Part shown: piece by piece, positions 1,163 to 61,929 of the stretch | Layout: every line of letters begins with the position of its first letter | How positions within the stretch are numbered: the stretch's first letter is position 1 | Assembly: GCA_017985015.1 (NCBI GenBank) | Contig: JAGNYI010000009.1 | Coordinates: 1-64,000, forward strand | Length of the DNA: 64,000 bases | DNA from: Giesbergeria sp. | Lineage (GTDB): Bacteria; Pseudomonadota; Gammaproteobacteria; Burkholderiales; Burkholderiaceae_C | Direction: 5' to 3' | Made by a program: the position numbers and the translations under genes | The notes under the pieces: generated by a model | Told to the model about the DNA's origin: nothing | The model's database searches: none | What the model saw: only the letters and a program-made list of their open reading frames with translations

Positions 1163-1218
1163 TTTTGATAGAAATAGGCCTCTAGCGCATACCCAGTATG
1201 CGTTGAAAGCTATCAAAA
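1163..1218. repeat. Dispersed palindromic repeat, copy A
   Basis: An imperfect palindrome filling the gap between the convergent stops of the hydrolase and glmM. The outer arms are TTTTGATAG (1163-1171) and CTATCAAAA (1210-1218). The inner arms are CGCATAC (1186-1192) and GTATGCG (1196-1202) around a 3-base loop. The core AGGCCTCTAGCGC matches the other copies in this window. Either strand would form a hairpin, so it could act as a bidirectional 3' end signal. Confidence 0.8.
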
Positions 1219-1227
1219 TAGGAGTAA

Positions 1228-2562
1228 CTAAGCCGCTCGAACGGCTTCGGCCAGACGTTCGGCGCAACGGCTTGCCTGCGCGGCGTCGCGCGCCTCCACC
1301 ATCACGCGCAGCACGGGCTCGGTGCCGCTGGCGCGAATCAGCACGCGGCCCAGGGCGCCCAGTTCGGCCTGCACGGCTTCGGTTTCCCGCGCCAGATGCG
1401 CATTGCTGCGCCAATCGCTACCGGGCGTCAGCCGGACATTGAGCAGCACCTGCGGGAACAGCGTCACCTCTTCCATCAGCTGCGCCAGCGTGCGGCCACT
1501 GCGCACCACGCACTGCAGTACCTGCAAGGCACTCACCAGGCCGTCGCCCGTGGTCTGCTTGTCGAGTGCCAGCAGGTGACCCGAGCCTTCGCCGCCCAGC
1601 AGCCAGCCGCGCTGCGCCAGCTCTTCCAGCACGTAGCGGTCGCCCACCTTGGCGCGCACGAGCTTGACCCCGCGTTCGGCCAATGCCAGCTCCACCGCCA
1701 TATTGGTCATCAGGGTGCCGACCACGCCCGGCACGAGTTCGTCGCGCCCCATGCGCTCGCGTGCCATGAGGTAGAGCAGTTCGTCGCCGTTGTAGAGGCG
1801 GCCTGCGGCATCCACGACTTGCAGACGGTCGGCATCGCCGTCGAGTGCAATGCCGTAATCGGCATGGTTGGCGCGCACCGCAAGCACCAGGGCGTCGGGA
1901 TGCGTGGCGCCGACCTCGTGGTTGATGTTGAGGCCGTCCGGCGAGCAGCCCATGGCGATCACGTCAGCACCCAGCTCATGAAACACCTTGGGCGCCACCT
2001 GGTAGGCGGCGCCGTGCGCGGCGTCCACGACGATCTTCAGCCCCTTGAGCGTCAGGTCGTGTGCGTACGTACTCTTGCAAAATTCGATGTAGCGCCCGGC
2101 GGCGTCGTCCAGCCGGCGCGCCTTGCCGAGCGAGGCCGAATCGGCCCAGACGGGTGCTTCGGCCAGCGCTTCTTCCACGGCCATTTCCCAGCTGTCGCTC
2201 AGCTTGCTGCCCTGTGCGCTGAAGAACTTGATTCCGTTGTCGGGAAACGGGTTGTGGCTGGCGCTGATGACCACGCCCAGGCTCGCGCGCTGGGCGCGGG
2301 TCAGATAGGCAACCCCCGGTGTAGGCAGCGGGCCGAGCAGCACCACGTCCACACCGGCCGAATTGAAGCCCGATTCGAGCGCGCTCTCGAGCATGTAGCC
2401 CGAGATGCGCGTGTCTTTGCCGATCAGGACCGTGGGGCGCTCTTCGCTGCGCTTGAGCACGCGGCCCACCGCATGGCCCAGCCGAAGAATGAAGTCGGGG
2501 GTGATCGGCGGCTCCCCCACCGTTCCGCGAATGCCGTCGGTGCCGAAATACTGTCTCTGCAT
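1228..2562 (-). CDS. glmM: Phosphoglucosamine mutase GlmM
   Basis: Converts glucosamine-6-phosphate to glucosamine-1-phosphate, the precursor of UDP-GlcNAc for peptidoglycan and lipid A. The 444-residue length is normal. It has the N-terminal YFGTDGIRG, the phospho-serine loop ISASHNP (about residue 100), the metal loop DGDADR, the sugar loop GEGSGH and the C-terminal phosphate loop RASGTEP. The frame is open to a TTG at 2577, but a GGAGAGG ribosome binding site sits just ahead of the ATG at 2562, so that start is preferred. It is the last gene of rlmE-ftsH-folP-glmM and starts 46 bases after folP. Confidence 0.97.
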
Positions 2563-2608
2563 GCTGGTCCTCTCCAAGATTCTTATGTTCTGTGCTGCGC
2601 AAGGCGGC

Positions 2609-3442
2609 TCAATCTACCGCGTTGCTGGCTGCCTGCCAGACGGTAAGTGCCTGTACCGTTTCGGCCACGTCGTGCACGCGCACCACGCGCGCCCCACGTT
2701 CCACCGCAAGAAGCGCCGCAGCAATGCTGGGAATGATGCGGGAGCCAACTTCCAGGCCGCTGACTGCGCCCAGTGGCGATTTGCGCGACCAGCCGGCCAG
2801 CAATGGGTAGCCCGCCTGCAACAGTTCGTTCTGGCGCGCCAGCAGCGCGAAATTCTGGGCCACGGTCTTGCCAAAACCGATGCCGGGGTCCAGCAGAATT
2901 CTGGCCTTTTCGACTCCCAGCGCTTGCACTGCCATTGCACGTTGCTTCAAAAAAGAGAGCACCTGCGCCGGAACATCGCCCTCCATGGGCTGCACCTGCA
3001 TGGTTTGTGGCTCACGGTGCATGTGCATCAGACAGACACCGCAGTGGGGGTGTCTGGCGACTATTTCCACGGCTCCGGTTTGGCGCAGCGCCCACACGTC
3101 GTTGACGATGTCTGCGCCCAAGTCGAGCACCTGCTGCATCACCCCCGGCTTGTAGGTATCCACAGAGACCGGAACGCCCAGGGAGACGGCGCCGCGCACC
3201 ACGGGCAGCACGCGCGCAAGTTCTTCGTCCAGCGGTACCGGGGGGCTTCCCGGCCGGGTGGATTCGCCTCCAATGTCGAGCAGATCAGCTCCGTCTCGCA
3301 GCAGCGCTTCACAATGCCGCAAGGCCGCCGCGCTGCCGGCGTGCTGCCCACCGTCCGAGAACGAATCGGGCGTGACATTGACGATCCCCATGACCTGCGG
3401 GCGGCTGAGGTCTATGGCGAAACGACTGGTTTGCCAGAACAT
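2609..3442 (-). CDS. folP: Dihydropteroate synthase
   Basis: Condenses p-aminobenzoate with hydroxymethyl-dihydropterin diphosphate in folate synthesis; this family is the sulfonamide target. At 277 residues it carries the hallmark motifs in order: [14 protein letters not shown] (about residue 19), [10 protein letters not shown] (about 57), DPGIGFGKT (about 188), [10 protein letters not shown] (about 219) and RVHDV near the C-terminus. The start is the ATG at 3442; the ribosome binding site is weak. It sits between ftsH and glmM, the conserved order in gamma- and betaproteobacteria. The ftsH-folP junction holds a hairpin that may lower read-through. Confidence 0.97.
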
Positions 3443-3475
3443 GCGTGGGGACGGAGAGGGAGATGGAGAACGAAC

Positions 3476-3498
3476 AAACGGGGCTTGCGCCCCGTTTT
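3476..3498 (-). terminator. Hairpin between ftsH and folP
   Basis: A perfect 9-bp stem, AAACGGGGC (3476-3484) with GCCCCGTTT (3489-3497). Read leftward, the loop is the stable tetraloop GCAA and the stem is followed by TTTGTTCGTT. It lies after the ftsH stop and 34 bases before folP. It resembles a leaky intrinsic terminator. Read rightward it has a TTTT tail, but no rightward gene ends here. Confidence 0.65.
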
Positions 3499-3520
3499 CT
3501 TCATTGCGGAAATGCCTGCA

Positions 3521-5440
<1,920 letters not shown>

Positions 5441-5558
5441 GCGGGACTCCAGAGTGGATAGCAGGGTAAGTTTGACCCAGATAGTGGCAATTTTAGGCTT
5501 TTCAAGCCGGGCCTCTCTTCAGCGCCCTGACAACAGGCCATTGCGCCAGCACGGTCTC

Positions 5559-6191
5559 TCAGGGTTTAAGGCCAACGCCCACCAGAAAGGTTTCCGACGA
5601 TTTGTCGCGCGAAGCCTTGGGTTTGAACGGTTTGACGAGACGAAAATTCGCGCGGAACGCGTCTGCCAACTCGGCATAGCCGCCGCCATGAAACACTTTG
5701 GCCACCAGCGCCCCGTCGGCCTGCAGATGGTTGCGGGCAAAGTCGATGGCCAGCTCCACCAGGAGCGAAATGCGCGTCGTGTCGGTCGCCGCGATTCCGG
5801 AAAGATTGGGCGCCATGTCGGAGACCACCAGATCGGCCTTGCGCTCGCCCAGCGCCGCTTCCAGTTGGGCCAACACCACGTCTTCTCGAAAATCGCCCAG
5901 AAGAAAGCGCACGCCCTCAACCGGCTCCATGGGCAGCAAGTCCAGGGCCACGATGGTGCCAGTGCCGCCCAGCCGGCGGCGTACGTACTGGCTCCAGGCT
6001 CCGGGCGCGCTGCCCAGATCGACCACCACGGCGCCTGGGCGGATCAGGCGAAAGTGCTCATCAATCTCTTTGAGCTTGTAGGCGGCGCGCGCGCGATAGC
6101 CTTCCTGCTGCGCGAGCTTGACGTAGGTGTCATTGACGTGGTCGTTGAGCCACGCCTTGTTGACCTTCTTGCTCTGGGTTTTGACTTTCAT
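5559..6191 (-). CDS. rlmE: 23S rRNA 2'-O-methyltransferase (U2552), RlmE/FtsJ
   Basis: Methylates the ribose of U2552 in 23S rRNA during late 50S assembly. The 210-residue protein starts MKVKTQSKK and has the SAM motif [14 protein letters not shown] (about residue 55) and the catalytic K-D-K-E tetrad seen as KLKEID, SDMAPN, AKVFHG and SSETFLVG. The frame is open far upstream, but that part overlaps the divergent yhbY gene and is spurious. The ATG at 6191 matches the family N-terminus. It heads the rlmE-ftsH-folP-glmM cluster and is divergent from yhbY. Confidence 0.96.
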
Positions 6192-6272
6192 GTAGCTGTA
6201 TTGTCGCCCGAGCCTCGTCATCGGTACTTTTGCATGAAAGGCGGCCCGCGCGAGGCCGCAGATAATACGGCC

Positions 6273-6749
6273 ATGCCCCAAATAGAACTCAACTCGGCCG
6301 CGCGCCGCGAATACCGCGCCCAGGCGCACCACCTCAATCCCGTGGTGATGGTGGGCGGCGACGGCCTGACACCCGCCGTTCGCAAGGAGATCGACGCTGC
6401 GCTCAATGCCCACGGCCTCATCAAGATTCGTGTTTTCAGCGACGACCGCGCAGCGCGTGAGCTGATGTATCAGGCACTGGCAGCCGAGCTCAACGCCGCG
6501 CCCATTCAGCACATTGGCAAGCTCTTCGTGCTGTGGCGCCCGCAACCCGAGAAAGAGCGCAGCGTGGACGAGGACCGCATGCCCGGCCCGCGCGATGTGA
6601 AGGTGCTGAAGTACAGCAAACGCGGCGGTCAGCGCCCCGAAATCAAGCAACTGCGCGTGCTGGGCAACCAGCGCTTGACGCCGGGCGGCCAGGTCAAGCG
6701 CGCCAAGAAGCCCAGGCTCACATCCATCAAGAAGCGCCAGTCCCCTTGA
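6273..6749 (+). CDS. yhbY: YhbY family RNA-binding (CRM domain) protein
   Basis: A CRM-domain protein that associates with pre-50S ribosomes in E. coli. Residues about 8-100 form the CRM domain, with the GxxG-type loop VGGDGLTP and the core KIRVFSDDR. The protein is 158 residues, longer than E. coli YhbY (about 97). The extra C-terminal 60 residues are rich in Lys/Arg ([12 protein letters not shown]) and probably add RNA affinity. It is divergent from rlmE, another 50S assembly factor, a conserved pairing. A GATAAT hexamer ends only 6 bases before the ATG. Confidence 0.93.
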
Positions 6750-6753
6750 TGCC

Positions 6754-7500
6754 ATGAGCGGTGCGAATCCGGCGCAGCCGCGCCATGTCATCTGCATGAA
6801 ATGGGGCAAAAAATACGGCTCCGAATACGTCAACCGCCTGTATGCCATGGTGCGCCGCCACCTGCGTGGCGACTTCCACTTTGTCTGCCTGACGGACGAT
6901 GCGGCAGGCATCCGCAGCGAAGTGCAGTGCCTGCCCATTCCGCCGCTGGATCTGCCGGCCGGCATCCCTGAGCGCGGTTGGAACAAGCTGGCCACATTCA
7001 GCGCCGATCTGTATGGCCTTCGGGGTACGGCGCTGTTTCTTGACGTGGACGTGGTGGTGACGGGCAGCCTGGACGACTTTTTTACCCAGCCCGGCGAGTT
7101 CCTGATCATTCACGACTACAAGCGGCCTTGGCGCATCACTGGCAACTCGTCGGTGTATCGCTTTGAGCTTGGGGCGCACCCGGACGTGCTGGGCTACTTT
7201 CGCTCCCATTTCAACGAGATTCGAGCCAATTTTCGCAATGAACAGGCGTATCTGTCGGATTTTTTGCACCGCCAGGGCAAGCTGGGCTATTGGCCCAAGG
7301 CCTGGTGTCCGAGCTTCAAGTACGACGGCATTCCGATCTGGCCCACCAATTACTGGCAGCCGCCCTTCGTCCCCGAAGGCGCGCGCGTGGTGATTTTTCA
7401 TGGCGAATGCAATCCGCCCGACGCGTTGGCCGGCCGGCGCAACCGGCGCTTTCGATTTATCCGGCCTGCCACCTGGGTGGCCGAACACTGGCATGAGTGA
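6754..7500 (+). CDS. Putative glycosyltransferase
   Basis: A 248-residue soluble protein with a GT-A-like layout. The N-terminal segment HVICMKWG is followed by CLTDDAAG (about residue 46), then the DXD motif in [10 protein letters not shown] (about residue 92) that would bind nucleotide-sugar and metal. It starts 4 bases after the yhbY stop, so the two are probably co-transcribed. It resembles a group of proteobacterial glycosyltransferases of unknown acceptor. No membrane segment or signal peptide is seen. Donor and acceptor are not inferable. Confidence 0.7.
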
Positions 7501-7635
7501 CACGTGCGCCTTCGCCGGTTTCGTCTGGAGCCAAGCTCAGTAGACGCCGCGCAAGGGCCGCCCCGCAGCGGTGGCCTCGTCCCCCTTCCCACGGCGCGCG
7601 GCGCGGTGAGAGAAGGAGGAAGCCGCATGAGCGGC
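7501..7635. other. GC-rich palindromic intergenic block
   Basis: A 135-base gap between convergent genes containing nested inverted repeats: GGCCGCC with GGTGGCC around 7557-7578, and AGCCGC/GCGGCT (7621-7626 with 7631-7636), which touches the DUF4149 stop codon. Purine-rich GAGAGAAGGAGGAAG lies between. No convincing ORF. It may serve as a 3' end structure for both genes, but the T-tracts are poor. Confidence 0.5.
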
Positions 7636-8058
7636 TCAGGGGGATGATGTTTTTTGCCCAGCGGTGCACCACAACACCATCAGCGCGCACAGCCACTGAA
7701 GGCCGAACATCACGCTGCCGGCGCTGTGCCACAGGCGCAGGTTCTGCCGCGCTTCAATGCGCGGTGCCACGCCAAACTGCACCAGCACCGCCAACAGCAT
7801 GCCACCCAGTATGAAAAGCATAGCTGCCCGCGCCCATGGATATTGCGCTACGTCCCCTTTTGGCCTTGAAATTACCATCAGCAAGAGGCCGCAAACCACC
7901 GACACCCAGGTCTGTGCAGCAAACAGCCGCGCCGCCATGTTCCCGGCCATGGCCGGCATGGGCAGATAGGCGAACAAAAGCGGCACGACGAGCGCCCCCA
8001 AGGTGGTGAGGCTGCCCCACCACAGCGCGGCGAGCAGCACGGGCAAGCGTTCGTGCAT
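7636..8058 (-). CDS. DUF4149 (TMEM205-like) membrane protein
   Basis: A 140-residue integral membrane protein of unknown function with four hydrophobic segments (about 6-30, 44-64, 77-97 and 113-133). This matches the DUF4149 family, which resembles eukaryotic TMEM205. The ATG at 8058 lies 2 bases after the greA stop, so it is very likely translated from the greA message. The stop codon overlaps the base of a small GC hairpin. No catalytic motif is visible. Confidence 0.8.
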   Translation of the reverse strand: MHERLPVLLAALWWGSLTTLGALVVPLLFAYLPMPAMAGNMAARLFAAQTWVSVVCGLLLMVISRPKGDVAQYPWARAAMLFILGGMLLAVLVQFGVAPRIEARQNLRLWHSAGSVMFGLQWLCALMVLWCTAGQKTSSP

Positions 8059-8060
8059 GC

Positions 8061-8537
8061 TCAGGCGTAGCTGATGCCCACGATTTCGTAATTGCGCACG
8101 CCGCCGGGCGCCTGCACTTCGGCGATATCGCCCTCGGTCTTGCCGATGAGCGCGCGCGCAATGGGGCTGCCAATGTTGATCAGGCCTTGTTTCAAGTCGG
8201 CCTCGTCTTCACCGACGATCTGGTAGGTGACGGCCTCACCGGTGTTCTCATCTTCCAGGCGGACGGTGGCGCCAAACACCACGCGGCCTTCCGCGTTGAT
8301 GGCGGTCGGGTCGATGATCTGCGCAGCCGAGAGCTTGCCTTCAATTTCCTGGATACGCCCTTCGATAAAGCCCTGGCGGTCTTTGGCGGCGTCGTATTCG
8401 GCGTTTTCGCTCAGATCGCCCTGCGCACGTGCTTCGGCAATGGCTGCGATGACCCCTGGGCGGTCTACGGTCTTGAGGCGATGCAGCTCGGTCTTGAGCT
8501 TTTCAGCGCCGCGTTTCGTGATGGGAAGAGTGGCCAT
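8061..8537 (-). CDS. greA: Transcription elongation factor GreA
   Basis: Rescues backtracked RNA polymerase by stimulating cleavage of the transcript 3' end. The 158 residues comprise an N-terminal coiled-coil hairpin with the acidic tip [12 protein letters not shown] (about residue 41), whose Asp and Glu reach the active site, and a C-terminal FKBP-like domain (QIVGEDEAD to the end). The frame is open to 8639, but the N-terminus [10 protein letters not shown] at 8537 matches the family. It follows carB after a probable terminator and precedes DUF4149 by 2 bases. Confidence 0.97.
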
Positions 8538-8711: not shown

Positions 8712-11966
<3,255 letters not shown>

Positions 11967-13810: not shown

Positions 13811-14584
13811 TCAGCGCGCGCTGGCGCTGGCATGCAGGCAAATGGCTGCCGCCGCGGCAACGTTGAGCGACTCTTCGCCGCCCGGCTGGGCGATGCGGAT
13901 GCGCCGGGTGGCCCGCACCTCCAGCGCGGCCGACACGCCCTGCCCTTCGTGGCCCAGCACCCACGCGCAGGGCCAGGGGAGTTCGGCGCGATGCAGGAAG
14001 TCGCCTTCATGCACATGGGTCACCAGCATCGGCACCCGCAGCGGCTGAAGGTCTTCAAGGCTTGCCGCCTCGATCAGGTCCAGCGCGAAATGCGCGCCCA
14101 TGCCCGCACGGAGCACCTTGGGCGACCACAGGGCGGCGCTGCCTTTGAGTGCAACCACTTGCTGAAATCCAAACGCAGAAGCGCTTCGCAGGATGGAGCC
14201 CACATTGCCGGCGTCCTGCACGCGGTCGAGCACCACCGTCGCAGCATCTGGCTGCAAGGCGGTGACGGCAGGCAGTTCGATAACGAAGCCCATGCGCGCC
14301 GGAGACTCCAGACCGCTGATGTCGGCAAACAAGGCATCGGAAAGCACTATCATTTTACTAGCTTCTTGGGACCATTCCACCGGCGCTAGAGGCCAAAAAG
14401 ACTCCGAAAAAACCGCAATTGACACGCTCTGCCCGCGCGCCAGCGCGGCGCGGCAGAGGTGATCCCCCTCGATCCAGACGCGGCCCTGCTTTCGATATTG
14501 CGTGCTGTCCTGTGCCAGGCGGCGCAGATCCTTGACGAAGGCGTTGTCCCGCGAATGGATGGCCGTCACCGAGGGCGAAGTCAT
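13811..14584 (-). CDS. TrmH/SpoU-family RNA 2'-O-methyltransferase
   Basis: A SPOUT-fold methyltransferase of 257 residues. The N-terminal substrate-binding domain (about 1-100) is followed by the knotted SAM domain with the three SpoU motifs: NVGSILRSA (about 131), VLGHEGQGV (about 212) and [16 protein letters not shown] (about 232). The ATG at 14584 overlaps the rnhB stop as ATGA, so it is preferred over the GTG at 14590. A dispersed palindromic repeat lies inside the gene and encodes residues about 62-79. The rRNA or tRNA target cannot be assigned; RlmB-like activity is one possibility. Confidence 0.88.
14347..14399. repeat. Dispersed palindromic repeat, copy B (inside methyltransferase gene)
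   Basis: A degenerate copy with the shared ends CTATCATTTTA-TAGCT and GGCGCTAGAGGCCAAAAA, compared with copy D and the copy in lpxB. It is in frame in the methyltransferase gene and encodes the linker [18 protein letters not shown], in a variable part of the N-terminal domain. Confidence 0.7.
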
Positions 14585-15219: not shown

Positions 15220-16348
15220 CGGCGGCCAGTTGGGGAGTGTTGCGCTGCAGACTTTCATGCAGTGCGGTAAAGCGCTGGTGCAGCGCGGTCATTCGGTCAG
15301 GGTCCTGCTCCAGTGCATCAAACCACTGAAGCACAGCGGCGGCCAGCGCCTGCGGCGTGGCATCATCCTGGAGAAGTTCCGGCACAACAAAATCGTTGCA
15401 CAGAATATTGGGCAAGCCCACCCAGGGCTGGAGCTGCTTGCGGCGCATCAGGCGCCAGCTCAGCGGATGCATGCGGTAGCCAATGACCATGGGGCGCTTG
15501 AACAGCGCAGCCTCCAGCGTCGCCGTGCCGCTGGCAATCAGGGTCACATCACAAGCGGCCAGCACCGTATGCGACTGGCCAGGAACGATCCGCAACACAT
15601 CGCCCAGGCCACAGTCATGCGCCGCTTGTTCGATACGGTTTTGTAAGGCAGGGACCGCAGGAACTATCATTTTAATAGCTGGAAACGCTTGATGGATAAG
15701 CGCTGCGGCCTCAAAAAATCTTGGAGTGATGTACTGCACCTCGGCAGAACGGCTGCCGGGCAGTATGGCCAGCACCGCATCACCGTCCCGCAGTCCCAAC
15801 TGGGCACGGGCCGCACGGCGGTCGGGCTCCATGGGAATCACACCGGCCAGGGGGTGACCTACATAGGTGGCCGTAATGCCGTGCTCGGCCAGCAGCGCGG
15901 GCTCGAACGGAAAGATGCAAAGCACGTGGTCGGCCGCACGGCGGATTTTTTCCACGCGATCGGCGCGCCAGGCCCAGATGGACGGGCAGACAAAATGCAC
16001 GGTCTTGATGCCGGCGGCGCGCAGGTCGGTTTCCAGTGCCAGATTGAAATCGGGGGCGTCCACGCCGATGAACACATCGGGCGGCTCAGCCAGCAGCCGG
16101 GCGCGCAACTGGCGTCGCATGCGAACGAGCTCGGCGAGGCGGCGCAGCAGTTCGAAACTGTAGCCGTGCACGGCAAGGCGCTCACTCGGCCACCAGGCAT
16201 CAAAGCCTTGCCTGGCCATCTGGGGACCGCCTATGCCGAATACCCGGAGATCGGGCCACAGACCGCGCATGCCGCCCAGCAGCAAGCTGGCCAGCAGATC
16301 GCCAGACGTTTCGCCCGCCACCATGGCGATGCGCGGTTGCTGCGTCAT
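15185..16348 (-). CDS. lpxB: Lipid-A-disaccharide synthase
   Basis: Condenses UDP-diacylglucosamine with lipid X to form the tetraacyl disaccharide of lipid A at the inner membrane surface. The 387 residues begin [19 protein letters not shown], the GT-B nucleotide region typical of LpxB, and include [24 protein letters not shown] and [10 protein letters not shown]. The ATG at 16348 follows the lpxA stop by 4 bases. Codons about 211-228 coincide with a dispersed palindromic repeat yet keep the family-like pattern [14 protein letters not shown]. It overlaps rnhB by 35 bases. Confidence 0.97.
15664..15718. repeat. Dispersed palindromic repeat, copy C (inside lpxB)
   Basis: The sequence CTATCATTTTAATAGCT followed by ACGCTTGATGGATAAGCG and GCGGCCTCAAAAAA matches the intergenic copies almost base for base. 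In the lpxB frame it encodes [18 protein letters not shown]. The arms CGCTT and AAGCG can still pair. Confidence 0.75.
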
Positions 16349-22861: not shown

Positions 22862-24052
22862 TCAGGCCGCCATGCGCGCGGCGTGCTGCTGCGCGCTGCT
22901 GCGCGCCCGAGCGTCAAGTTCGAGGAGCGCCGCCAGCGAATCGGGCTTGGAGGAGGGAACTGTGGTCAAAGTTTCGACATTCAAGGCGTGAATCTGGTCA
23001 AACCGGATGCGCCGCTCCAGAAAAGCCGCCACCGCTACCTCATTCGCCGCATTGAGCACCACAGTGGTTCCCGGCGGGGCGGCCAGGGTTTCCCAGGCCA
23101 GACGCAACGAAGGGAATCGCTCTGGATGCCCGTGATCGTCGATGGACTCGAAGGTCATGGCGCCGAGCGCATGAAAATCAAGCGCTGCAGCGCCCGAAGC
23201 GACGCGCTCGGGCCACGACAGGCCGTAGGCAATGGGCACCCGCATGTCCGGCGTGCCCATTTGCGCCACCACCGACATGTCGCGGTACTGGACCATCGAG
23301 TGGATGGTGCTTTGCGGATGGATGACGACGTCGAGTTGCTCCGGCGCCAAACCGAACAAGTAGCGCGCCTCGATCACTTCGAGCGCCTTGTTCATCATGG
23401 TGGCCGAATCGACCGATATCTTGCGGCCCATGACCCAGTTGGGGTGGGCGCAAGCATCCGCGGGGGTCACGTCCCGCAGGCTTGCTGGCGCGCGCGAGCG
23501 AAACGGGCCGCCCGAGGCCGTGAGAATGATTTTGTCGACCCGCTCGCCCCAGGTCGCTGGATCGTCCGGCAGGGACTGAAAAATCGCCGAATGCTCGCTG
23601 TCAATGGGCAGCAGCGTGGCGTGGCCGTCTCGCACCGCGCGCAGGAAAACCTCACCCCCCACCACCAACGCCTCCTTGTTGGCGAGCAGCAAGCGCTTTC
23701 CTGCGTGCGCGGCCGCCAGGCAGGGAGCCAGACCGGCCGCTCCGACGATGGCCGCCATCACGCTGTCTACCTCCGCGTGAGATGCTATTATTTCAAGAGC
23801 ATCTTGCGATTGCAGTACCTGCGTTGGAAGCCCATTGGACTGGATTTTTTCCGCCAGATCGCGTGCGTGCGGTGCGCTCGCCATCACGGCGTAACGGGGC
23901 CGAAATTGCGCGCATTGCGCCAGGAGCAAATCGGTCTGCGTCGATGCGCTCAAGGCAAAGACTTCAAAGCGCTCTGGGTGGCGCGCGATCACGTCGAGGG
24001 TGTTCTTGCCAATCGACCCGGTGGAGCCGAGCACCGTTACGCGCTGGCGCAT
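22862..24052 (-). CDS. dxr: 1-deoxy-D-xylulose 5-phosphate reductoisomerase
   Basis: Committed step of the MEP isoprenoid pathway. At 396 residues it has the NADPH loop VLGSTGSIGKNTLDV (about residue 7), the metal-binding IDSEHSAIFQ (about 148) and the NKALEVIEARYLF segment. The ATG at 24052 overlaps the cdsA stop as TGATG; a GTG three bases earlier is an alternative. A diverged copy of the dispersed repeat lies at codons about 73-89. Confidence 0.97.
   Translation of the reverse strand: MRQRVTVLGSTGSIGKNTLDVIARHPERFEVFALSASTQTDLLLAQCAQFRPRYAVMASAPHARDLAEKIQSNGLPTQVLQSQDALEIIASHAEVDSVMAAIVGAAGLAPCLAAAHAGKRLLLANKEALVVGGEVFLRAVRDGHATLLPIDSEHSAIFQSLPDDPATWGERVDKIILTASGGPFRSRAPASLRDVTPADACAHPNWVMGRKISVDSATMMNKALEVIEARYLFGLAPEQLDVVIHPQSTIHSMVQYRDMSVVAQMGTPDMRVPIAYGLSWPERVASGAAALDFHALGAMTFESIDDHGHPERFPSLRLAWETLAAPPGTTVVLNAANEVAVAAFLERRIRFDQIHALNVETLTTVPSSKPDSLAALLELDARARSSAQQHAARMAA
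23785..23836. repeat. Diverged dispersed repeat, copy D2 (inside dxr)
   Basis: CTATTATTTCAAGAGCATCTTGCG followed, after the loop, by TGCGTTGGAAGCCCATT. This resembles the consensus CTATNATTTNATAGCNNCTAGCGC plus GCGCTAGAGGCCNATT, with several mismatches. It encodes DALEIIAS in the same frame as the KMIV peptides of the other two in-gene copies. This is the weakest member of the family. Confidence 0.45.
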
Positions 24053-28976: not shown

Positions 28977-30347
28977 ATGGCAAAAGACCTTGACAGTACG
29001 CTGCGCCTGCTGCACGCCGGCGGCACCACTGCAATGGCGGAAATGGCGCGCTGCATCCAGCGGGCGCTCACTCCCGAATGCCAGCATGTCTTCACACCCT
29101 TGCTGCCGGAGCAGGCTGCCCGCGAAGCCACCAACCCTGGGCAGGCCCATCGCCCCCTGGCCGGCCTGGCAGTTTCGGTGAAAGACCTGTTTGACATGCA
29201 AGGGATGCCTACCCCGGCGGGCTCCCGGGTGCTGGCCGAGGCGCCGCCTGCGGCTTGTGATGCACTGGCCGTGCAGCGTCTGCGTGCGGCAGGCGGCGCC
29301 GTGATTGGGCGCACGCAGATGGTGGAATTCGCCTTTTCCGGTGTTGGCATCAACCCCCACCATGGCACGCCAGCTGCTTTTGACGGCCGCTTTGGCGCGC
29401 TGCCAGGGGCGCCGCGCGTGCCTGGAGGCTCGTCCTCGGGCGCGGCCGTGTCGGTAGCTACCGGGGCCGCGTTCATTGGCCTGGGTTCGGACACCGGGGG
29501 TTCGATTCGCATTCCTGCGGCCTTGTGCGGCATTGTCGGCTTCAAGAACACCGCCCGCCTGGTGCCCACTGCGGGCGCCGTGCCGCTCTCGACCACCCTG
29601 GACACCGCTTGCGCCATGACGCGCTCGGTGCGCGACGCCGTGCTGGCGCACGAAATTCTGGCGGCGCGGCGCGTGACGCGCAGCCCGGCACCCTTGTCGG
29701 CGTGGCGGCTGGCGGTGCCCGGCGGGGTGTTTCTCGAAGGCTTGGAGCCCCCCGTGCGCACCGCGTTCGAGCGCAGTGTGGAGCAATTGCGCCGCGCCGG
29801 CGCACGTATCGTGGAAATCGACCTGCCCGAAGTGGCGCAACTCGCGGGCCTGCAAGCCACTGGCGGTTTTGCCGCCGCAGAGAGTTTCGCCTGGCACCGG
29901 CAACATTTGGCCCGAAATGGAGCCGCCTACGACCCGCGCGTGCGGGTGCGGATCGAGCGCGGCGCACGCATGTCTGCGGCGGACTACATCGACCTGTTGC
30001 ACGCGCGCACCGCCTGGATCGCGCAGATCGAGACCGCCATTGGCGACTTCGACGCCCTGCTCTCGCCCACCGTCCCCATCCTGGCCCCATTGCTGGCGTC
30101 GATCGCACCGGCGGACGGCAGCGATACGCAGCAGGATGCAGCACGCGACGCGGAGTTTCAGCGCGTCAATGCCCTGCTGCTGCGCAACCCCAGCATTGTC
30201 AATATGCTTGACGGCTGCGCGCTGTCGCTGCCCTGCCACCAAGCCGGAGAACTTCCGGTGGGCATGATGCTGTGGCACGCCGCGCTGCACGACGATGCGG
30301 TGCTCAATGTGGGCCTGCGGGTGGAAGAACAACTACAAAAATCATAG
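28977..30347 (+). CDS. Amidase (amidase signature family)
   Basis: A 456-residue amide hydrolase of the amidase signature family, with the Ser-cisSer-Lys triad: Lys in LAVSVKD (about residue 68), cis-Ser in VPGGSSSGAA (about 152) and nucleophile Ser in SDTGGSIRIPA (about 176). The ATG at 28977 has AAGGA about 12 bases upstream. The substrate is unknown; it is not part of a gatCAB set. The stop codon TAG lies inside a copy of the dispersed repeat. Divergent from rpsB and followed by the FAD oxidoreductase. Confidence 0.88.
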   Translation: MAKDLDSTLRLLHAGGTTAMAEMARCIQRALTPECQHVFTPLLPEQAAREATNPGQAHRPLAGLAVSVKDLFDMQGMPTPAGSRVLAEAPPAACDALAVQRLRAAGGAVIGRTQMVEFAFSGVGINPHHGTPAAFDGRFGALPGAPRVPGGSSSGAAVSVATGAAFIGLGSDTGGSIRIPAALCGIVGFKNTARLVPTAGAVPLSTTLDTACAMTRSVRDAVLAHEILAARRVTRSPAPLSAWRLAVPGGVFLEGLEPPVRTAFERSVEQLRRAGARIVEIDLPEVAQLAGLQATGGFAAAESFAWHRQHLARNGAAYDPRVRVRIERGARMSAADYIDLLHARTAWIAQIETAIGDFDALLSPTVPILAPLLASIAPADGSDTQQDAARDAEFQRVNALLLRNPSIVNMLDGCALSLPCHQAGELPVGMMLWHAALHDDAVLNVGLRVEEQLQKS

Positions 30348-30386
30348 CTACTAGCGCTTTATGGATAAGCGCTAGAGGCAAAAAAT
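30331..30386. repeat. Dispersed palindromic repeat, copy D
   Basis: Contains TCATAGCTACTAGCGCTTTATGGATAAGCGCTAGAGGCAAAAAAT (given here as consecutive short blocks: TCATAGCTACTAGCGCTT, TATGG, ATAAGCGCTAGAGGC). The arms CTAGCGCTT and AAGCGCTAG pair perfectly. The repeat supplies the TAG stop of the amidase and ends 11 bases before the next ATG. Confidence 0.85.
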
Positions 30387-30397
30387 ACCCAGAATTC

Positions 30398-31663
30398 ATG
30401 AAGATTGCGATTGTGGGCGCCGGCGTGGCCGGCGTGACCACGGCTTACGAGTTGGCGCGCCACGGCCACACCGTCACCGTGTTCGAACGGCGCGCCAGTG
30501 CCGCCGAAGAAACCAGCTTTGCGCCTGGCGCCGTGCGCGGCCTGGGTCCACTGGCTCCGTGGGCGCTGCCCGGGGCCATGGGCGTGCCGCGTGCCCTGGG
30601 CAGTTCGGCCAGCGTTCAGGCCGGCCGCGCCAGCAGCTTGGCGCAGCTGCGTTGGCTCTGGCAATGGCAAAGCGCTGCGCGCAAAGCACTGCGCAGCGAA
30701 GAGCCGACACCCGCCATGCGTGCGCTGGCGCAGCTCTCGCAGTGGAGCCAGCACTGCTACCTTGACACCGCCGAGGCACTGGAGCTTGACCTGGAGCACA
30801 GCTGCGGCGCACTGCTCTTGCTGCAAGACGACCGCACCGCCGCGCCGCTGCGCCAGGCCGTGCAAGCGCTGCGCAGCGCAGGTGCTCTGCTGCACGAACT
30901 GGACGCCGCAGCCGCGCGCAAGCTCGAACCCGGGCTGGCGGAGAACGCAGAATTCGCCTTGGCGCTGCACCTGCCCGCGGCCGAGGCCGGCAACTGCCGC
31001 CAGTTCAGCGTGCTGCTGCGACAGGCCGCGCAGCGCCTGGGCGCCGAGTTCTTGTTTCAGGCCGAAGTCACCGCAATTCGCAGCACCTCCAACGGCACCA
31101 CGCTGCAACTGCGCGGCGAAGCCGAGCCCCGGCGCTTCGAAGCTGCCGTGCTGTGCAGTGGCGCCGATGCCTTGTCCCTGCTCGCGCCGCTGGGCGTGCG
31201 CACCGGCATGGTGGCACTGTGGGGCTATTCGCTGACTGCACCGCTGCGCGAAGGCGTTCCTGGACCGCAAGGCACCGTGCTGGACGCGGCGCGGCAGGTG
31301 AGCCTGGCGCGCCTGGGCCAGCGCATCCGCGTTTCCGGCGGCGCCGAACTGGGCGGCACCGGAGCGGCGCAGCACCCGAAGGCCCTGCACGCGCTCTATG
31401 AGGCTCTGGACACCTGGTTTCCCGGCAGCGCCCAGCGCGGCGCCGGCCTGCAGATGTGGCGCGGCGCCCGTGCCATACGGCCAAGCGGCCTGCCCCTGCT
31501 CGGAGCCAGCGGCGTACCCGGCCTGTGGCTCAACCTGGCCCACGGCGACGGCGGCTGGTCCCTGGCCAGCGGTTGCGCGCGGGAGCTGGCTCAGCAACTG
31601 GTCGGAAGCGAATCAGCGCTCACACCCACCGACCTGCTGCACTTCGCCCCCAGCGGTGCCTAA
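30398..31663 (+). CDS. FAD-dependent oxidoreductase, DadA-like
   Basis: A 421-residue DAO-family flavoprotein. The N-terminus MKIAIVGAGVAGVTTAYELA is a Rossmann FAD-binding fold followed by the acidic residue of TVFER. The C-terminal FAD contact is in LWLNLAHGDGGWSLA (about residue 375), similar to the SHGHLGWTLAPG-type region of D-amino acid dehydrogenases. The start at 30398 has no clear ribosome binding site because a repeat copy occupies the upstream DNA. The substrate is probably an amine or D-amino acid, by family resemblance only. Confidence 0.8.
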   Translation: MKIAIVGAGVAGVTTAYELARHGHTVTVFERRASAAEETSFAPGAVRGLGPLAPWALPGAMGVPRALGSSASVQAGRASSLAQLRWLWQWQSAARKALRSEEPTPAMRALAQLSQWSQHCYLDTAEALELDLEHSCGALLLLQDDRTAAPLRQAVQALRSAGALLHELDAAAARKLEPGLAENAEFALALHLPAAEAGNCRQFSVLLRQAAQRLGAEFLFQAEVTAIRSTSNGTTLQLRGEAEPRRFEAAVLCSGADALSLLAPLGVRTGMVALWGYSLTAPLREGVPGPQGTVLDAARQVSLARLGQRIRVSGGAELGGTGAAQHPKALHALYEALDTWFPGSAQRGAGLQMWRGARAIRPSGLPLLGASGVPGLWLNLAHGDGGWSLASGCARELAQQLVGSESALTPTDLLHFAPSGA

Positions 31664-31698: not shown

Positions 31699-33213
31699 AT
31701 GGCGCACATGCTGCGCATCCTGCCCGATAGCCCCCACCCACTTCACGACCTGGAAGCGACGCGCTCCATTGAGCACAGCGCGGCGGCAAGCCTGCCGCCC
31801 TACACGCTGATGCAGCGTGCCGGTCTGGCCACCGCACGCCTGGCTCGCGCCCTGGCGCCGCACGCCCGTGCCGCGTGGATCGTCTGTGGGCCGGGGAACA
31901 ACGGCGGCGACGGGCTGGAAGCTGCCGCACACCTGCACCGCGCGGGCATTCGCGTCACCGTCACCTGGCTGGGCAGCGAGGCCCGTTTGCCGCCCGATGC
32001 CCAACACGCGTTGCACCGGGCGCGGGGCGCGGGCGTAGTTTTTGCCGATTCCCCTTCCATTGCCCTCACTGCGGCTGACATCTGCGTGGACGCCATGCTG
32101 GGCATCGGTCTGGCGCCTGGCGACGCAGCGCGTCCGCCTCCGGCCCACTGGCTGGCCTTGCTGGCGCAATTGCGCGCCGGCCCCGCCTGCCTGCTGTGTG
32201 TGGACCTGCCCAGCGGCCTGCAGACCGATACCGGGGCCTGGGCGGATGGCTTTGCTCCCGAAATGGCCGCGCGCGCACCCTGCCACACGCTGTCACTGCT
32301 CACGCTCAAACCCGGCCTCTTCACCGCCCACGGCCGCGACGCCGCAGGCACCGTGTGGCTGGACACGCTCGACACCGCTGCGAACGAGACCCGCGCCACC
32401 GCCTGGCTGACCGGCCCGCCCCCGGCCGCGCACCGCGTGCATGCCAGCCACAAGGGCAGCTACGGCGATGTCGCCGTCGTCGGCGGCGAGGGTCTGGCAC
32501 GGCGTGGCATGGGCATGGAGGGCGCTGCGCTGCTGGCGGCCGGCGCCGCCTTGCACGCTGGCGCCGGCCGTGTGCTGCTGGCGCTGCTGGACGGCGCAGC
32601 GCTCCCAGCCGCCCTCTGGGCGCCCGAGCTGATGCAGCGCCGCTTTGAGGTGCTCGAGCTGGAAGCGCTGACCGTGGTCTGTGGCTGCGGCGGCGGCGAG
32701 GCCGTGGCCGAGGTGCTGCCCGCCGTGCTGGCCCGCGCCGCCCGGCTGGTGCTCGACGCTGACGCCCTTAACGCCGTTGCCAGCAGCGCGGCGTTGCAAA
32801 CCGCACTGGCAAAGCGTGCAGCGCTCCGGCAGGGCACCATCTTGACACCGCACCCGCTCGAAGCCGCCCGCCTGCTGGGCTGCAGCGCCCAGGCGGTGCA
32901 GGCCGATCGCCTGGCGGCAGCGCAGAGCCTGGTACAGCGCTTTGGCTGCGTCTGCGTGCTCAAGGGTTCGGGCAGCGTGGTGGCCGGGCCGGGGCGCGTG
33001 CCCGCCATCAACCCCACGGGAAACGCGCGCCTGGCCACGGCCGGCACGGGCGATGTGCTGGCCGGCATGCTGGGTGCCCACTGGGCGACAGGGAAAGAAT
33101 CTTTCGCGGCAGCGTGCAGCGCCGTCTACCAGCACGGCCGCTTGGCCGACCGCTGGCCTGCAGACCAGGCACTGGTTGCCAGCGCGCTCTCAAAGGCGTC
33201 AAATTTTGATTAA
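31699..33213 (+). CDS. nnr: Bifunctional NAD(P)H-hydrate epimerase / ADP-dependent dehydratase
   Basis: Repairs hydrated NADH and NADPH. The 504 residues fuse an N-terminal YjeF_N epimerase domain (about 1-230; VCGPGNNGGDGLEAA at about 58) with a C-terminal ribokinase-like dehydratase domain (about 245-500; HKGSYGDVAVVGG at about 250 and NPTGNARLATAGTGDVLAGML at about 435, given in part). The ATG at 31699 is chosen; the one at 31708 is also possible. The TAA stop lies within a repeat copy. Ala-rich and high in GC, like its upstream neighbour. Confidence 0.94.
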   Translation: MAHMLRILPDSPHPLHDLEATRSIEHSAAASLPPYTLMQRAGLATARLARALAPHARAAWIVCGPGNNGGDGLEAAAHLHRAGIRVTVTWLGSEARLPPDAQHALHRARGAGVVFADSPSIALTAADICVDAMLGIGLAPGDAARPPPAHWLALLAQLRAGPACLLCVDLPSGLQTDTGAWADGFAPEMAARAPCHTLSLLTLKPGLFTAHGRDAAGTVWLDTLDTAANETRATAWLTGPPPAAHRVHASHKGSYGDVAVVGGEGLARRGMGMEGAALLAAGAALHAGAGRVLLALLDGAALPAALWAPELMQRRFEVLELEALTVVCGCGGGEAVAEVLPAVLARAARLVLDADALNAVASSAALQTALAKRAALRQGTILTPHPLEAARLLGCSAQAVQADRLAAAQSLVQRFGCVCVLKGSGSVVAGPGRVPAINPTGNARLATAGTGDVLAGMLGAHWATGKESFAAACSAVYQHGRLADRWPADQALVASALSKASNFD

Positions 33214-33265
33214 AAATAGGCCCTAGCGCTTATTCCACCAGCGCAAGCAGCTCCTGAAATAAGAG
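33203..33265. repeat. Dispersed palindromic repeat at the nnr 3' end
   Basis: TTTTGATTAAAAATAGGCCC, then CTAGCGCTTATTCCACC, then AGCGCAAGCAGCTCCTGAAAT. It is in reverse orientation relative to copy D. It provides the nnr stop codon (TAA, 33211-33213) and lies in the convergent nnr-rnr gap. Confidence 0.8.
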
Positions 33266-33313
33266 CGAATCGGCACAGCTGCAGGGGCGGACCAGGCAGA
33301 CCCGCGCTGCGCC

Positions 33314-42017: not shown

Positions 42018-42081
42018 GAACGCGCGCACGATCCGAGCCCCACCCTTCGCCTGGAACGCGGCGCAAGCACGATTTTTCCGA

Positions 42082-42140
42082 CTTTTTAGGCCTCCAGCGC
42101 TTACTGGGTAAGCGTTGTCAGCTATCTATTCAATAGTATT
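42082..42140. repeat. Dispersed palindromic repeat, copy E
   Basis: CTTTTTAGGCCTCCAGCGC, then TTACTGGGTAAGCG, then TTGTCAGCTATCTATTCAAT. The inner arms CGCTTAC and GTAAGCG pair perfectly. It fills the convergent nrdR-aroC gap and ends 4 bases before the aroC stop. Confidence 0.85.
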
Positions 42141-42144
42141 GCGT

Positions 42145-46056: not shown

Positions 46057-46104
46057 ATCGCGCCAGTGGCCAAGCTTGGGATTCAGTGGAGCCACAATCC
46101 AGGT

Positions 46105-46159
46105 AAAAAGGGCTCTGCCGCTTTGCCCTATTGCGCTGGTAGCTACTCAAAACATAGCG
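46105..46159. repeat. Degenerate dispersed repeat, copy H
   Basis: AAAAAGGGCTCTGCCGCTTTG, then CCCTATTGCGCTGGTAGCTACT, then CAAAACATAGC. It matches the family core (GGCCTCTAGCGC, GCGCTAGTAGCTAT) with several mismatches. It lies in the convergent gap between the hydrolase and the FimV-like gene. Confidence 0.55.
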
Positions 46160-46234
46160 CACCGCACCGCTGAATGTAGGCTGCATCCCAACGGGAAGCC
46201 GTGTCGGATACCGTCCAATAGCTCCCGGTACAAC

Positions 46235-60513: not shown

Positions 60514-61844
60514 GCCTCAAGAATTCCAGCACGCCGCAGCCGAAAGGCGGGGAAGCGGATGCTGAAGGTCGAGCCCCTTCCCGGCGTGCTCTCCACCACC
60601 AATTGCGCTCCGTGGCGCTGCACCACGTGCTTCACGATGGCAAGTCCCAGACCTGTCCCGCCAGTGTCGCGCGAGCGGCTGCGATCCACACGGTAGAAGC
60701 GCTCGGTGATTCGCGGCAAATGTTCTGCATCGATACCGGGCCCGGTGTCACGCACACGGAACACGGCGTCGCCACCGGGCTGCCACGTCCACTCCACCTC
60801 AATGCTGCCATCGGCGGGCGTGTAGCGCACCGCATTGCCCACCAGGTTGGACAACGCACTGTGCAGCTCGGCGCCGCCGCCGGCAATCTCGCCCGCGTCT
60901 TCTGGCTGTGAAAACCGGGGGAAGCGCAGGCTCTGCCGTAGCCCCATGACTGCGGCCAGCGCGCCGGCCTCCTGTTCGCAGCGCTCCAGCAGTGCCGCCA
61001 CCGGCATCCACTCCGCCAAGCCCGGCGGCGGGCTGGCCTCCAGCCGGGAGAGCGCCAGCAAGCCCTCGACCACACGCTGCATGCGCTGGGCTTGCTGCGC
61101 CATCAGTGCGAGGTAGCGCGACTGCTCCTGCTCCTCCAGCGGCAAGGTCTGCAGCGTCTCGACGAAGCCGGCCAGTACGGTCAGCGGCGTGCGGATTTCG
61201 TGCGAGACATTGGCTACAAAGTCGCGCCGCATGGACTCGGCCTGCTCCGCCGCCGTGACATCGCGCGTGAGCATGAGCTTCTGGCCAACGCCGTAAGCAC
61301 ACAACTGGATGGACAGGCGCGCCGCCCGTCCATCGCTCTGGCCATGGGTGGTGATGACGAGTTCGCGCGACCAGTCGCCACCAGCCAGATAGGCCGAGAA
61401 ATCGGGGTCGCGCAGCAGGTTTCCGATGAACTGCTCGACATCGCGCTGGGCGTCGATGGACAGATGCCGCGCGGCGTTGTGGTTGCACCAGACGATGCGG
61501 GATTTGTCATCCAGCAGCAGCACACCGCTCGGGGTGGCCTGAAGAGCGTCCAACATACCGCCCAGCCGCTGGTCGCTCGCAGTAGCTTGCTGCTCACGCT
61601 GACGCAGCAGACGCTGGACGCGATCCACCGCTTCGCCCCAGACGCCGACGCGCGCTGGCACCGGGCCTGGCGGCGCATCGCGCAGCCAACGCAGCACGCG
61701 CCCCGCCCGCATCAGGTCGACGAGGAACCACAGCCAGACTACAGCCGCCGCACCTGCCAACGCGCCCCAGGCGCCATGCAGAGCAAAGCCCAGGCCGGCG
61801 CCCAGCAGTTGGGCGCCAAGAAAGATCAGCGAGCGGGTCCACAT
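60510..61844 (-). CDS. phoR: Phosphate regulon sensor histidine kinase PhoR
   Basis: Senses phosphate status through the Pst-PhoU complex and phosphorylates PhoB. The 444 residues have two membrane helices at the N-terminus (about 5-46), a PAS-like domain (about 95-190), the HisKA box NVSHEIRTPLTVLAG (phospho-His about residue 216) and the ATPase boxes NLVGNAVRYTP, DTGPGID and GGTGLGLAIVKH. It is separated from phoB by 100 bases holding a repeat copy. Its TAA stop overlaps the stop of the convergent membrane protein gene. Confidence 0.96.
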   Translation of the reverse strand: MWTRSLIFLGAQLLGAGLGFALHGAWGALAGAAAVVWLWFLVDLMRAGRVLRWLRDAPPGPVPARVGVWGEAVDRVQRLLRQREQQATASDQRLGGMLDALQATPSGVLLLDDKSRIVWCNHNAARHLSIDAQRDVEQFIGNLLRDPDFSAYLAGGDWSRELVITTHGQSDGRAARLSIQLCAYGVGQKLMLTRDVTAAEQAESMRRDFVANVSHEIRTPLTVLAGFVETLQTLPLEEQEQSRYLALMAQQAQRMQRVVEGLLALSRLEASPPPGLAEWMPVAALLERCEQEAGALAAVMGLRQSLRFPRFSQPEDAGEIAGGGAELHSALSNLVGNAVRYTPADGSIEVEWTWQPGGDAVFRVRDTGPGIDAEHLPRITERFYRVDRSRSRDTGGTGLGLAIVKHVVQRHGAQLVVESTPGRGSTFSIRFPAFRLRRAGILEA

Positions 61845-61876
61845 GGGCGGCCGTCAGAATAGGAAAAAATAAAGTG

Positions 61877-61929
61877 AAAATTGCCCATAGCGCTTACTAC
61901 ACAAGCATTAGCAGCTATGAAATCAGGAG
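61877..61929. repeat. Dispersed palindromic repeat, copy G
   Basis: AAAATTGCCCATAGCGCTTA, then CTACACAAGCATTAGCAGCT, then ATGAAATCAGGA. The core AGCGCTTA with AAGC-TTAGCAGCTAT matches the family. It lies between phoB and phoR within the leftward operon, so it would sit in the middle of the message. Confidence 0.75.

What the first reader, a model, noticed from the sequence alone, without database searches (positions are those of the whole stretch)
1163..61929. Family of about ten dispersed 50-60 bp palindromic repeats
Copies sit at 1163-1218, 14347-14399, 15664-15718, 23785-23836 (weak), 30331-30386, 33203-33265, 42082-42140, 46105-46159 (degenerate), 53945-54000 and 61877-61929. Seen: a shared layout of CTATNATTTNATAGCT, an arm CTAGCGCTT, a short loop, an arm AAGCGCTAG, then AGGCCNAAAAA, in both orientations. 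Density is about one per 6 kb. Similar elements are, from general knowledge, common in Comamonadaceae genomes, but I know of no assigned function or transposase. They may be REP- or MITE-like elements moved by a rare transposase elsewhere.
Basis: partly seen in the sequence, partly recalled or inferred. Interest (0 to 1): 0.7.

Follow-up and report, generated by a model that had tools for sequence, protein, structure and literature searches.

The report
Evenly spaced 70-bp chromosomal DNA repeat
This bacterium's chromosome carries several hundred evenly spaced copies of a 70-letter DNA signal, some written into essential genes without disturbing the protein; related species have lost the whole set, so some unknown protein probably reads it.

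Summary
The repeat family is real and larger than reported. All ten listed sites belong to it. A 70-bp profile finds 123 copies in 861 kb of this genome, none in Markov-simulated sequence; about 480 per genome by extrapolation. It behaves like a double-stranded DNA signal: its stem pairs no better than independent columns predict, A and T tracts swap as blocks, both orientations occur equally. Copies in lpxB and dxr align without gaps to solved homologues; in lpxB and spoU codons turn A/T-rich at the motif only in carriers. One copy, in moeA of a relative, is a true in-frame insertion. Copies stay at orthologous places, favour 3' gene ends and are more evenly spaced than chance. Two species nested among carriers have lost the set. 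A single-copy RAYT-family gene has a degenerate copy over its stop codon here and in six of 15 other carriers checked, so a RAYT origin is possible. But the GTAG-type head, compensated stems and (in most) paired inverted flanks of REPs are missing, and RAYT persists in losers. A core motif was printed in 2017 (PMC5217627) without a function. Best reading: a protein-read chromosomal site, perhaps RAYT-seeded. Uptake-signal and plain REP readings remain open.

The parts
1159..1230 (+). Copy 1, between convergent ORFs (strand given is the GGCC-first strand)
   Evidence: 80.7 bits; ORFs
7803..7874 (-). Weak extra copy not in the finding, inside a DUF4149 gene (7636-8058 -)
   Evidence: 31.4 bits; Pfam
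14341..14412 (-). Copy inside a SpoU-family rRNA methyltransferase gene (13811-14590 -)
   Evidence: 45.1 bits; Pfam; at the same place in 14 of 16 carriers
15658..15729 (-). Copy inside lpxB (15185-16384 -)
   Evidence: 51.6 bits; ungapped alignment to solved LpxB; in relatives
23779..23850 (-). Copy inside dxr (22862-24055 -)
   Evidence: 48.8 bits; ungapped alignment to solved Dxr; absent from the ungapped orthologues of G002 and G028
30327..30398 (-). Copy reaching the ATG at 30398 of an in-frame ORF
   Evidence: 81.5 bits; letters
33200..33271 (+). Copy at the ends of convergent ORFs
   Evidence: 74.4 bits; ORFs
42071..42142 (+). Copy between convergent ORFs
   Evidence: 72.4 bits; ORFs
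46092..46163 (+). Degenerate intergenic copy
   Evidence: 39.5 bits
53942..54013 (-). Copy between convergent ORFs, overlapping the end of 54000-54926 (-)
   Evidence: 76.7 bits; ORFs
61864..61935 (+). Intergenic copy
   Evidence: 77.7 bits

Best explanation
Each copy is a double-stranded DNA recognition site of about 70 bp, repeated some 480 times (extrapolated) round the chromosome at fairly even distances. Shown here: constraint at DNA level, also inside genes; positions kept between species; both orientations; 3' ends preferred and divergent gaps avoided; the whole set lost in some genomes. Inferred: an unidentified DNA-binding factor, present only in some lineages, reads the sites (A/T tracts round the dyad CTAGCGCTTATnnnATAAGCGCTAG plus the half-site AGCTATnAAAAnAATAG); when it is lost or changed the sites decay together. 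The likeliest job, inferred from spacing and placement, is organising or bending the chromosome, functionally closest to BIMEs. The likeliest seed, also inferred, is the flank of a RAYT-family gene, which carries the right half-site even in some species without the family; some copies then came by insertion (moeA) and others by substitution (dxr).
For: Profile and simulated control. Stem pairing equals the independent-column expectation: 0.672 v 0.675 in 39 intragenic, 0.702 v 0.695 in 195 intergenic copies; strongest couplings are between neighbouring columns, AA/TT 91/30 with 1 TA and 1 GA. Tandem gaps: 33 same, 34 opposite orientation; 30 copies in 62 convergent, 66 in 326 tandem, 5 in 79 divergent gaps, 22 in none of these. 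A/T at four-fold sites inside against outside the motif: lpxB 0.63 v 0.14 (14 carriers), 0.24 v 0.22 (6 non-carriers); spoU 0.53 v 0.12 (13), 0.27 v 0.24 (6). Orthologous gaps with G012: both 12, own only 1, other only 1; G007: 7, 1, 0; shared ones all in the same orientation. Spacing CV 0.636 v 0.906 (sd 0.075) in a class-matched null, 0 of 2000 as low. RAYT flank.
Against: No reader was found. Evenness in G012 is weaker: P=0.07 with all 20 stretches; an earlier P=0.006 had left out the last stretch. G012 has 25 copies on + and 48 on -, P=0.0095, unexplained; leading 34 and lagging 28, P=0.53. A 10.5-bp phasing of A/T content was not significant, P=0.28. About 60 bits of shared information (G012 profile) is more than a simple binding site needs and is easier to get by copying. 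The moeA copy is an insertion, and 3 of 4 G028 gaps that lack the site are 104-249 bp shorter. Third-base change in lpxB and spoU is only modestly low: 30 of 376 and 69 of 236 windows are as low or lower. Some intergenic copies fold well as RNA. Losers G002 and G005 keep the RAYT gene.
Confidence: 0.38

Rival explanations
1. A REP-type element of this family's RAYT: spread in trans by the single-copy RAYT, kept near its gene, and otherwise parasitic or only loosely useful.
For: RAYT-family gene with a copy over its stop codon in 7 of 16 carriers and 5'-side copies in G001, G006 and G035; half-site after the stop in 13 of 20 genomes, 3 of 5 non-carriers included, a score reached by at most 1 of 335 other G002 genes; moeA insertion; high shared information; palindromic core; 3' preference.
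Against: No compensated stem; inverted flanks in 1 of 16 carriers; ungapped copies in lpxB and dxr; even spacing; few decayed copies; RAYT kept by losers, and absent from carriers G003 and G022. A sense copy of 24 bits or more stands near the 3' end of 52 of 735 own genes, and the RAYT genes are orthologues, so the flank copy may be one inherited event. The RAYT tree does not separate carriers.
Confidence: 0.3
2. A DNA-uptake or self-recognition signal, working like DUS of Neisseriaceae or USS of Pasteurellaceae: competent cells prefer DNA that carries it, and biased uptake with recombination maintains it.
For: Hundreds of copies in and between genes, both orientations, gain in a gene by substitution (dxr), genome-wide loss, possible dialects. 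ComEC: no match in G086 (6 motif matches) and G082 (1); comEC of G028 is split over three frames, and that genome has 0.029 copies per kb with the own profile against 0.100 and 0.125 in G029 and G035, though its own-dialect profile finds 22 in 240 kb.
Against: Far longer than DUS or USS. ComEC frames are open in losers G002 and G005 and in G356, G361, G234, G373 and G278, so motif loss does not follow comEC loss; G028 is one genome and could be sequencing error. A passage of PMC1939737 (cut at its start) uses lack of downstream bias and imperfect evenness to argue against other roles for uptake sequences; this motif has both.
Confidence: 0.18
3. A bidirectional transcription terminator or 3'-UTR RNA element.
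For: 3'-end and convergent preference; RNA folding z -1.9 to -4.7 in 6 folds of 3 intergenic copies.
Against: z -0.84 for a fourth intergenic copy and +1.57, -0.56, -1.84 for the three intragenic ones. No U-run next to the stem and no terminator-like call at the four copies within 1000-20000. No compensated pairs. Kept in sense orientation inside lpxB and spoU across species.
Confidence: 0.06
4. A functionless relic that is simply inherited.
For: Old, shared positions.
Against: Near-invariant columns beside free ones and few decayed copies; codon pull inside genes only in carriers.
Confidence: 0.03

Closest known systems
Motif pairs in PMC5217627 (2017, Table 7): GCTTAT(N)5AAGCG in Acidovorax ebreus, 114 copies; ATAGCT(N)22CAAAAG in Polaromonas naphthalenivorans, 125 copies
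   Same: The first pair lies letter for letter in columns 30-45 of the profile. Its 44 convergent, 4 divergent, 59 co-oriented and 5 genic copies of 114 match the placement here. So the core was in print as a potential novel motif.
   Different: No full unit, in-gene evolution, loss, spacing test, RAYT or function given in the section read. The second pair fits only partly.
REP elements with RAYT (PMC2817692, abstract part and passages) and BIMEs
   Same: Palindromic, abundant, 3' ends; a RAYT-family gene with a copy at its 3' end in several carriers.
   Different: That paper gives RAYT genes always flanked by two inverted REPs, GT(A/G)G heads and preserved complementarity; here these are largely absent, the unit is 70 bp, single and also inside genes.
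DUS / USS uptake sequences
   Same: Dispersed in and between genes, both orientations, lineage-bound.
   Different: About 70 bp instead of 9-12 (lengths recalled), sparser, 3'-biased, evenly spaced.
BRE, Betaproteobacterial repeat element (PMC3110155, section 14)
   Same: Also in Comamonadaceae genomes.
   Different: About 90 bp, mean 69% GC in Bordetella, partly in tandem; 1 copy in Acidovorax JS42, while the core pair has 114 in A. ebreus. Sequences not aligned here.
Rickettsia palindromic elements (recalled)
   Same: In-frame insertion into a gene, as in moeA of G012.
   Different: Host and mostly intergenic placement; not compared by tool.

Membership tests
REP element with RAYT | RAYT gene flanked by two inverted copies (PMC2817692) | tested here: inconclusive
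   RAYT-family gene 76.3 bits, cut-off 80. Of 16 carriers: 3' copy in 7, of which G001 also has an inverted 5' copy and G006 a 5' copy in the same sense; 5' copy only in G035; 17.0 bits at 3' in G029; no hit in the other 7
REP element with RAYT | Palindrome kept by complementary changes | tested here: not met
REP element with RAYT | GT(A/G)G head at the palindrome | tested here: not met
   No such head in the consensus; an (A/G)TAG lies at columns 64-67, not at a stem head. Read off the profile, no separate test
REP element with RAYT | Extragenic | tested here: not met
   16, 20 or 22 of 123 not intergenic, by margin used
MITE | Length step at an empty site and target duplication | tested here: inconclusive
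   Step in moeA and 3 of 4 G028 gaps; none in lpxB, dxr or the four G002 gaps. Target duplications not tested
DUS/USS | Short over-represented word | tested here: not met
   70-bp constrained unit
DUS/USS | Copies inside genes gained by substitution | tested here: met
   dxr ungapped against G002 and G028, -29 and -47 bits against +49
DUS/USS | Goes with competence genes | tested here: inconclusive
   ComEC in 148 of 150, 19 of 20 and 26 of 26 genomes (sets overlap), open in losers
DUS/USS | Raises DNA uptake | not testable with these tools
   Needs an uptake assay
Intrinsic terminator | GC stem followed at once by a U-run | tested here: not met
   (19 kb of the window scanned)
Rfam RNA family | Match to a curated model | tested here: not met
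   4 matches in the window at E<=1, none at a copy
Motif pair of PMC5217627, A. ebreus | GCTTAT(N)5AAGCG, intergenic, convergent bias | tested here: met

The most novel reading that the evidence does not exclude
No class known to me combines this length, spacing and in-gene evolution.
Probability: 0.4. Interest if true: 0.85.

Novelty: new variant of a known kind. Interest (0 to 1): 0.6.

Why it matters
If the sites are read by a protein, every several kilobases of these chromosomes carry a mark that could organise the chromosome or tell own DNA from foreign DNA. If a RAYT seeded them, this would show how a transposase-linked repeat becomes a host signal written even into essential genes. Annotators should note that the start of Pfam DUF1010, found in a common class 1 integron cassette, looks like translated repeat.

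Tried and rejected
That rested, whose model missed a 36.8-bit copy that my own profile list already held. Searches were made to test this, and odds were moved toward a REP/RAYT origin (0.2 to 0.3; best explanation 0.42 to 0.38; uptake 0.25 to 0.18; novel case 0.45 to 0.4).

A hairpin or RNA function: not supported. Pattern search with up to 2 mismatches: no match in the own genome; the pattern's loop was one base too short. Replacement dialect in loser G002 (480 kb): k-mer scans showed a CRISPR-like repeat and coding-type words, no dispersed substitute recognised. ComEC as predictor of loss: suggestive in three genomes, contradicted by losers. DprA: in 20 of 20, uninformative. A/T phasing at 10.5 bp: not significant. 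Dialects: column shifts in G028, G029 and G035 come from 22, 15 and 26 copies found from a profile trained on G000 and may include false copies, so they are only a lead. RAYT tree: does not separate carriers; G014 and G015 were left out because my script mis-framed them. Phages: one record, the integron cassette, listed as Salmonella. Plasmids of the family: 0, 2 and 1 copies in three 50-kb stretches, two of them chosen because they held hits.

Literature: ten searches. The only description of the core that I recognised is PMC5217627; one search held 633 papers, 25 listed, none opened. Seen: PMC5217627 passages and section 13; PMC3110155 passages and section 14; PMC1939737 one passage; PMC3630211 passages; PMC12616744 abstract and outline; PMC2817692 passages, part of the abstract included; PMC3733652 a term search with no occurrence of the genera asked. 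BIME and RPE features, DUS/USS lengths and the E. coli origin of solved homologues are recalled.
Full report
Observation. The ten sites are one family. I took 40 stretches of the own genome, mostly 20 kb, from contigs picked for size, which with the window make 861 kb. A profile grown from 29 of the 30 best copies (one was mis-oriented and dropped) converged on 123 copies above 28 bits; three more fell at 14.8-19.4 bits, and the simulated control gave none at 16 bits or more. Of these 126, 70 lie on one strand and 56 on the other. Extrapolated to 3.37 Mb this is about 480 copies.

Anatomy. Read with GGCC first, the unit is AAATTT, a second A/T tract (AAA or TTT as a block), GGCCT, the dyad CTAGCGCTTAT-nnn-ATAAGCGYTAG, then AGCTAT, a third A/T tract, and ATAGC with an A/T tail. 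Columns 29-31 and 52-54 are 97-99% conserved while others vary freely. The right arm is less conserved than the left, and column 46 is C or T while its partner stays mostly G.

Not a helix signal. Across 123 copies the strongest column couplings are neighbours, not stem partners. Pairing in the stem equals what independent columns predict, in 39 intragenic and 195 intergenic copies of the own genome and relatives. Of four intergenic copies folded, three fold better than shuffles and one does not; the three intragenic ones do not reach z -2. AA and TT swap as blocks (91 against 30, with 1 TA and 1 GA), which a narrow-groove A-tract would allow. Copies in tandem gaps point either way equally, 33 against 34. 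Together this favours a double-stranded DNA signal.

Place in the genome. With a home-made gene caller, 30 copies lie in 62 convergent gaps, 66 in 326 tandem gaps, 5 in 79 divergent gaps and 22 in none of these (with other margins gave 31 convergent, 64 tandem, 6 divergent, 20 inside genes and 2 at contig ends). Published counts for the core in Acidovorax ebreus show the same bias, 44 convergent to 4 divergent. Spacing is more even than chance: CV 0.636, against 0.957 for uniform placement and 0.906 for a class-matched gap null, 0 of 2000 simulations as low. In relative G012 the 20 sampled stretches hold 0-7 copies. The evenness test there gives P=0.07 with all 20; I first ran it without the last stretch and got 0.006; the full figure is the one to use. 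G012 has 25 copies on + and 48 on - (P=0.0095), which I cannot explain; relative to the GC-skew strand it is 34 against 28 (P=0.53).

Inside genes. In this window copies lie in a SpoU methylase gene, lpxB and dxr, and a weak one in a DUF4149 gene. LpxB and Dxr align to solved homologues with no gap at the site. The lpxB site scores above 28 bits in 12 of 16 carriers with a full gene, 17-28 bits in the other 4, and there is no hit above 12 bits in 6 of 6 genomes without the family or nearly so (G002, G005, G026, G030, G031, G032). At four-fold sites the share of A/T inside the motif is 0.63 against 0.14 elsewhere in 14 carriers, and 0.24 against 0.22 in those six; spoU shows the same, 0.53 against 0.12 (13 carriers) and 0.27 against 0.24 (G027 and G028 were left out of both carrier sets and G010 of the spoU set). 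The rate of third-base change is only modestly lower there (30 of 376 and 69 of 236 windows as low). The dxr copy is in G000 and G012 (49 and 43 bits), while the ungapped orthologues of G002 and G028 score -29 and -47; G004 and G007 could not be scored because their gene calls were cut. So some copies arise by substitution.

Insertion too. The copy in moeA of G012 (91 bits) adds a loop: 32 residues stand where the solved MoeA 1fc5 has 3, and a Rhodoferax MAG homologue is 24 residues shorter there, counted by hand. Five other intragenic copies were compared with solved structures: aminopeptidase N has 7 residues of gaps at the site, methionyl-tRNA synthetase carries it in a variable linker, and three gave no usable alignment there. 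New copies therefore arise in more than one way.

Stability and loss. For neighbouring genes that are neighbours in both genomes, G000 and G012 share 12 copies, one is private to each, and 84 pairs have neither; G007 gives 7, 1, 0 and 37; G004 gives 4, 1, 2 and 35; G028 gives 1, 4, 0 and 33; G002 gives 0, 4, 0 and 36; shared copies all keep orientation. In G002 the four gaps are not shorter by 70 bp (18, 6, -227 and 25 bp), in G028 three of four are 104-249 bp shorter. In a family sample 53 of 150, and in a larger overlapping one 116 of 330, have at least one match. On an LpxB tree of 22 rows built without the motif residues, losers G002 and G005 sit beside carrier G010 with 100/99 support (one gene only). 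Other genera hold both carriers and near-empty genomes: G356, G361 and G234 have one match each. Loss of a common reader would explain this.

The RAYT. The genome has one Y1 transposase gene, just under the cut-off of NCBIfam REP_Tyr_transpos, 76.3 against 80 bits. A 36.8-bit copy overlaps its stop codon. Of 16 carriers looked at, 7 have a copy of 23.7-69.5 bits there (G000, G012, G015, G014, G001, G006, G010), G029 has 17.0 bits, and 5'-side copies occur in G001, G006 and G035. A half-site GCTATnnATTTTGAT within 15-47 bases after the stop scores 10.6 or more in 13 of 20 genomes, 10 of 15 carriers and 3 of 5 non-carriers (G002, G005, G031); G012 scores 15.2 but elsewhere; at most 1 of 335 other G002 genes does as well. 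Against a special link: 52 of 735 own genes have a sense copy of 24 bits or more near the 3' end; in 15 carriers the 56 kb round the gene hold 6 copies of 28.0 bits or more where density predicts 8, though all lie close to the gene; losers keep the gene, G003 has no Y1 match and G022 only an IS200-like one, yet both reach the cap of motif matches. PMC2817692 describes RAYT genes as always flanked by two inverted REPs with GT(A/G)G heads and preserved complementarity; here only G001 has inverted flanks and the other two features fail.

Which function. ComEC is missing or broken in three genomes with few or sparse copies (G082, G086, G028) but open in losers G002, G005, G356, G361, G234, G373 and G278, so a competence link is not established. 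I lean to a chromosome-organising site, perhaps RAYT-seeded, then a plain REP element, then an uptake signal, and give none more than 0.38.

Prior print. PMC5217627 (section 13) lists GCTTAT(N)5AAGCG, which lies exactly in the profile, as a potential novel motif without function. The BRE of PMC3110155 is described as longer, GC-rich and partly tandem, and seems distinct; sequences were not aligned.

Side result. The gcuF cassette of class 1 integrons (beside dfrA12 and aadA2; cassette name recalled) holds a copy (53.8 bits) in the ORF that Pfam calls DUF1010. Of ten translated copies that I picked from 94 open ones among 234, five have DUF1010 as their only hit, in its first third to half and below its cut-off. 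That part of the family looks like translated repeat.

Noticed in passing
L161:2399-2689 (class 1 integron cassette): The DUF1010 ORF between dfrA12 and aadA2 contains a copy of the repeat (53.8 bits); 5 of 10 translated chromosomal copies hit the start of Pfam DUF1010 below cut-off, so part of that family may be translated repeat.
   Followed up: partly
L031:1103-1182 and L185-L204: Half-site GCTATnnATTTTGAT, mostly followed by TGTCCCC or the like, lies just after the stop of the RAYT-family gene in 13 of 20 genomes, also in species without the dispersed family.
   Followed up: partly
window 40129-40277: ZMP/ZTP riboswitch match at 40.7 bits, just over the gathering score of 39.
   Followed up: no
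window 35673-35757 and 35863-35947: Two tandem tRNA-Leu genes with the same CAG anticodon.
   Followed up: no
L165:10500-14500 (G028): comEC region open only in pieces over three frames, while G029 and G035 have 825- and 864-aa frames.
   Followed up: partly
G002 sampled stretches (L117-L120, L141-L160): Words of a CRISPR-like repeat such as TTCCCCACATG and GGGATGAACCG dominate the over-represented words and vanish when counted by 2-kb bins.
   Followed up: no
own genome stretches and G012: Words such as TCGGCAATG and GGCAATGGC are over-represented in both genomes; not the repeat, cause unknown.
   Followed up: no
G012:C1 sampled stretches (L121-L140): Copies lie 25 on + and 48 on - (P=0.0095) without following GC skew.
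   Followed up: no
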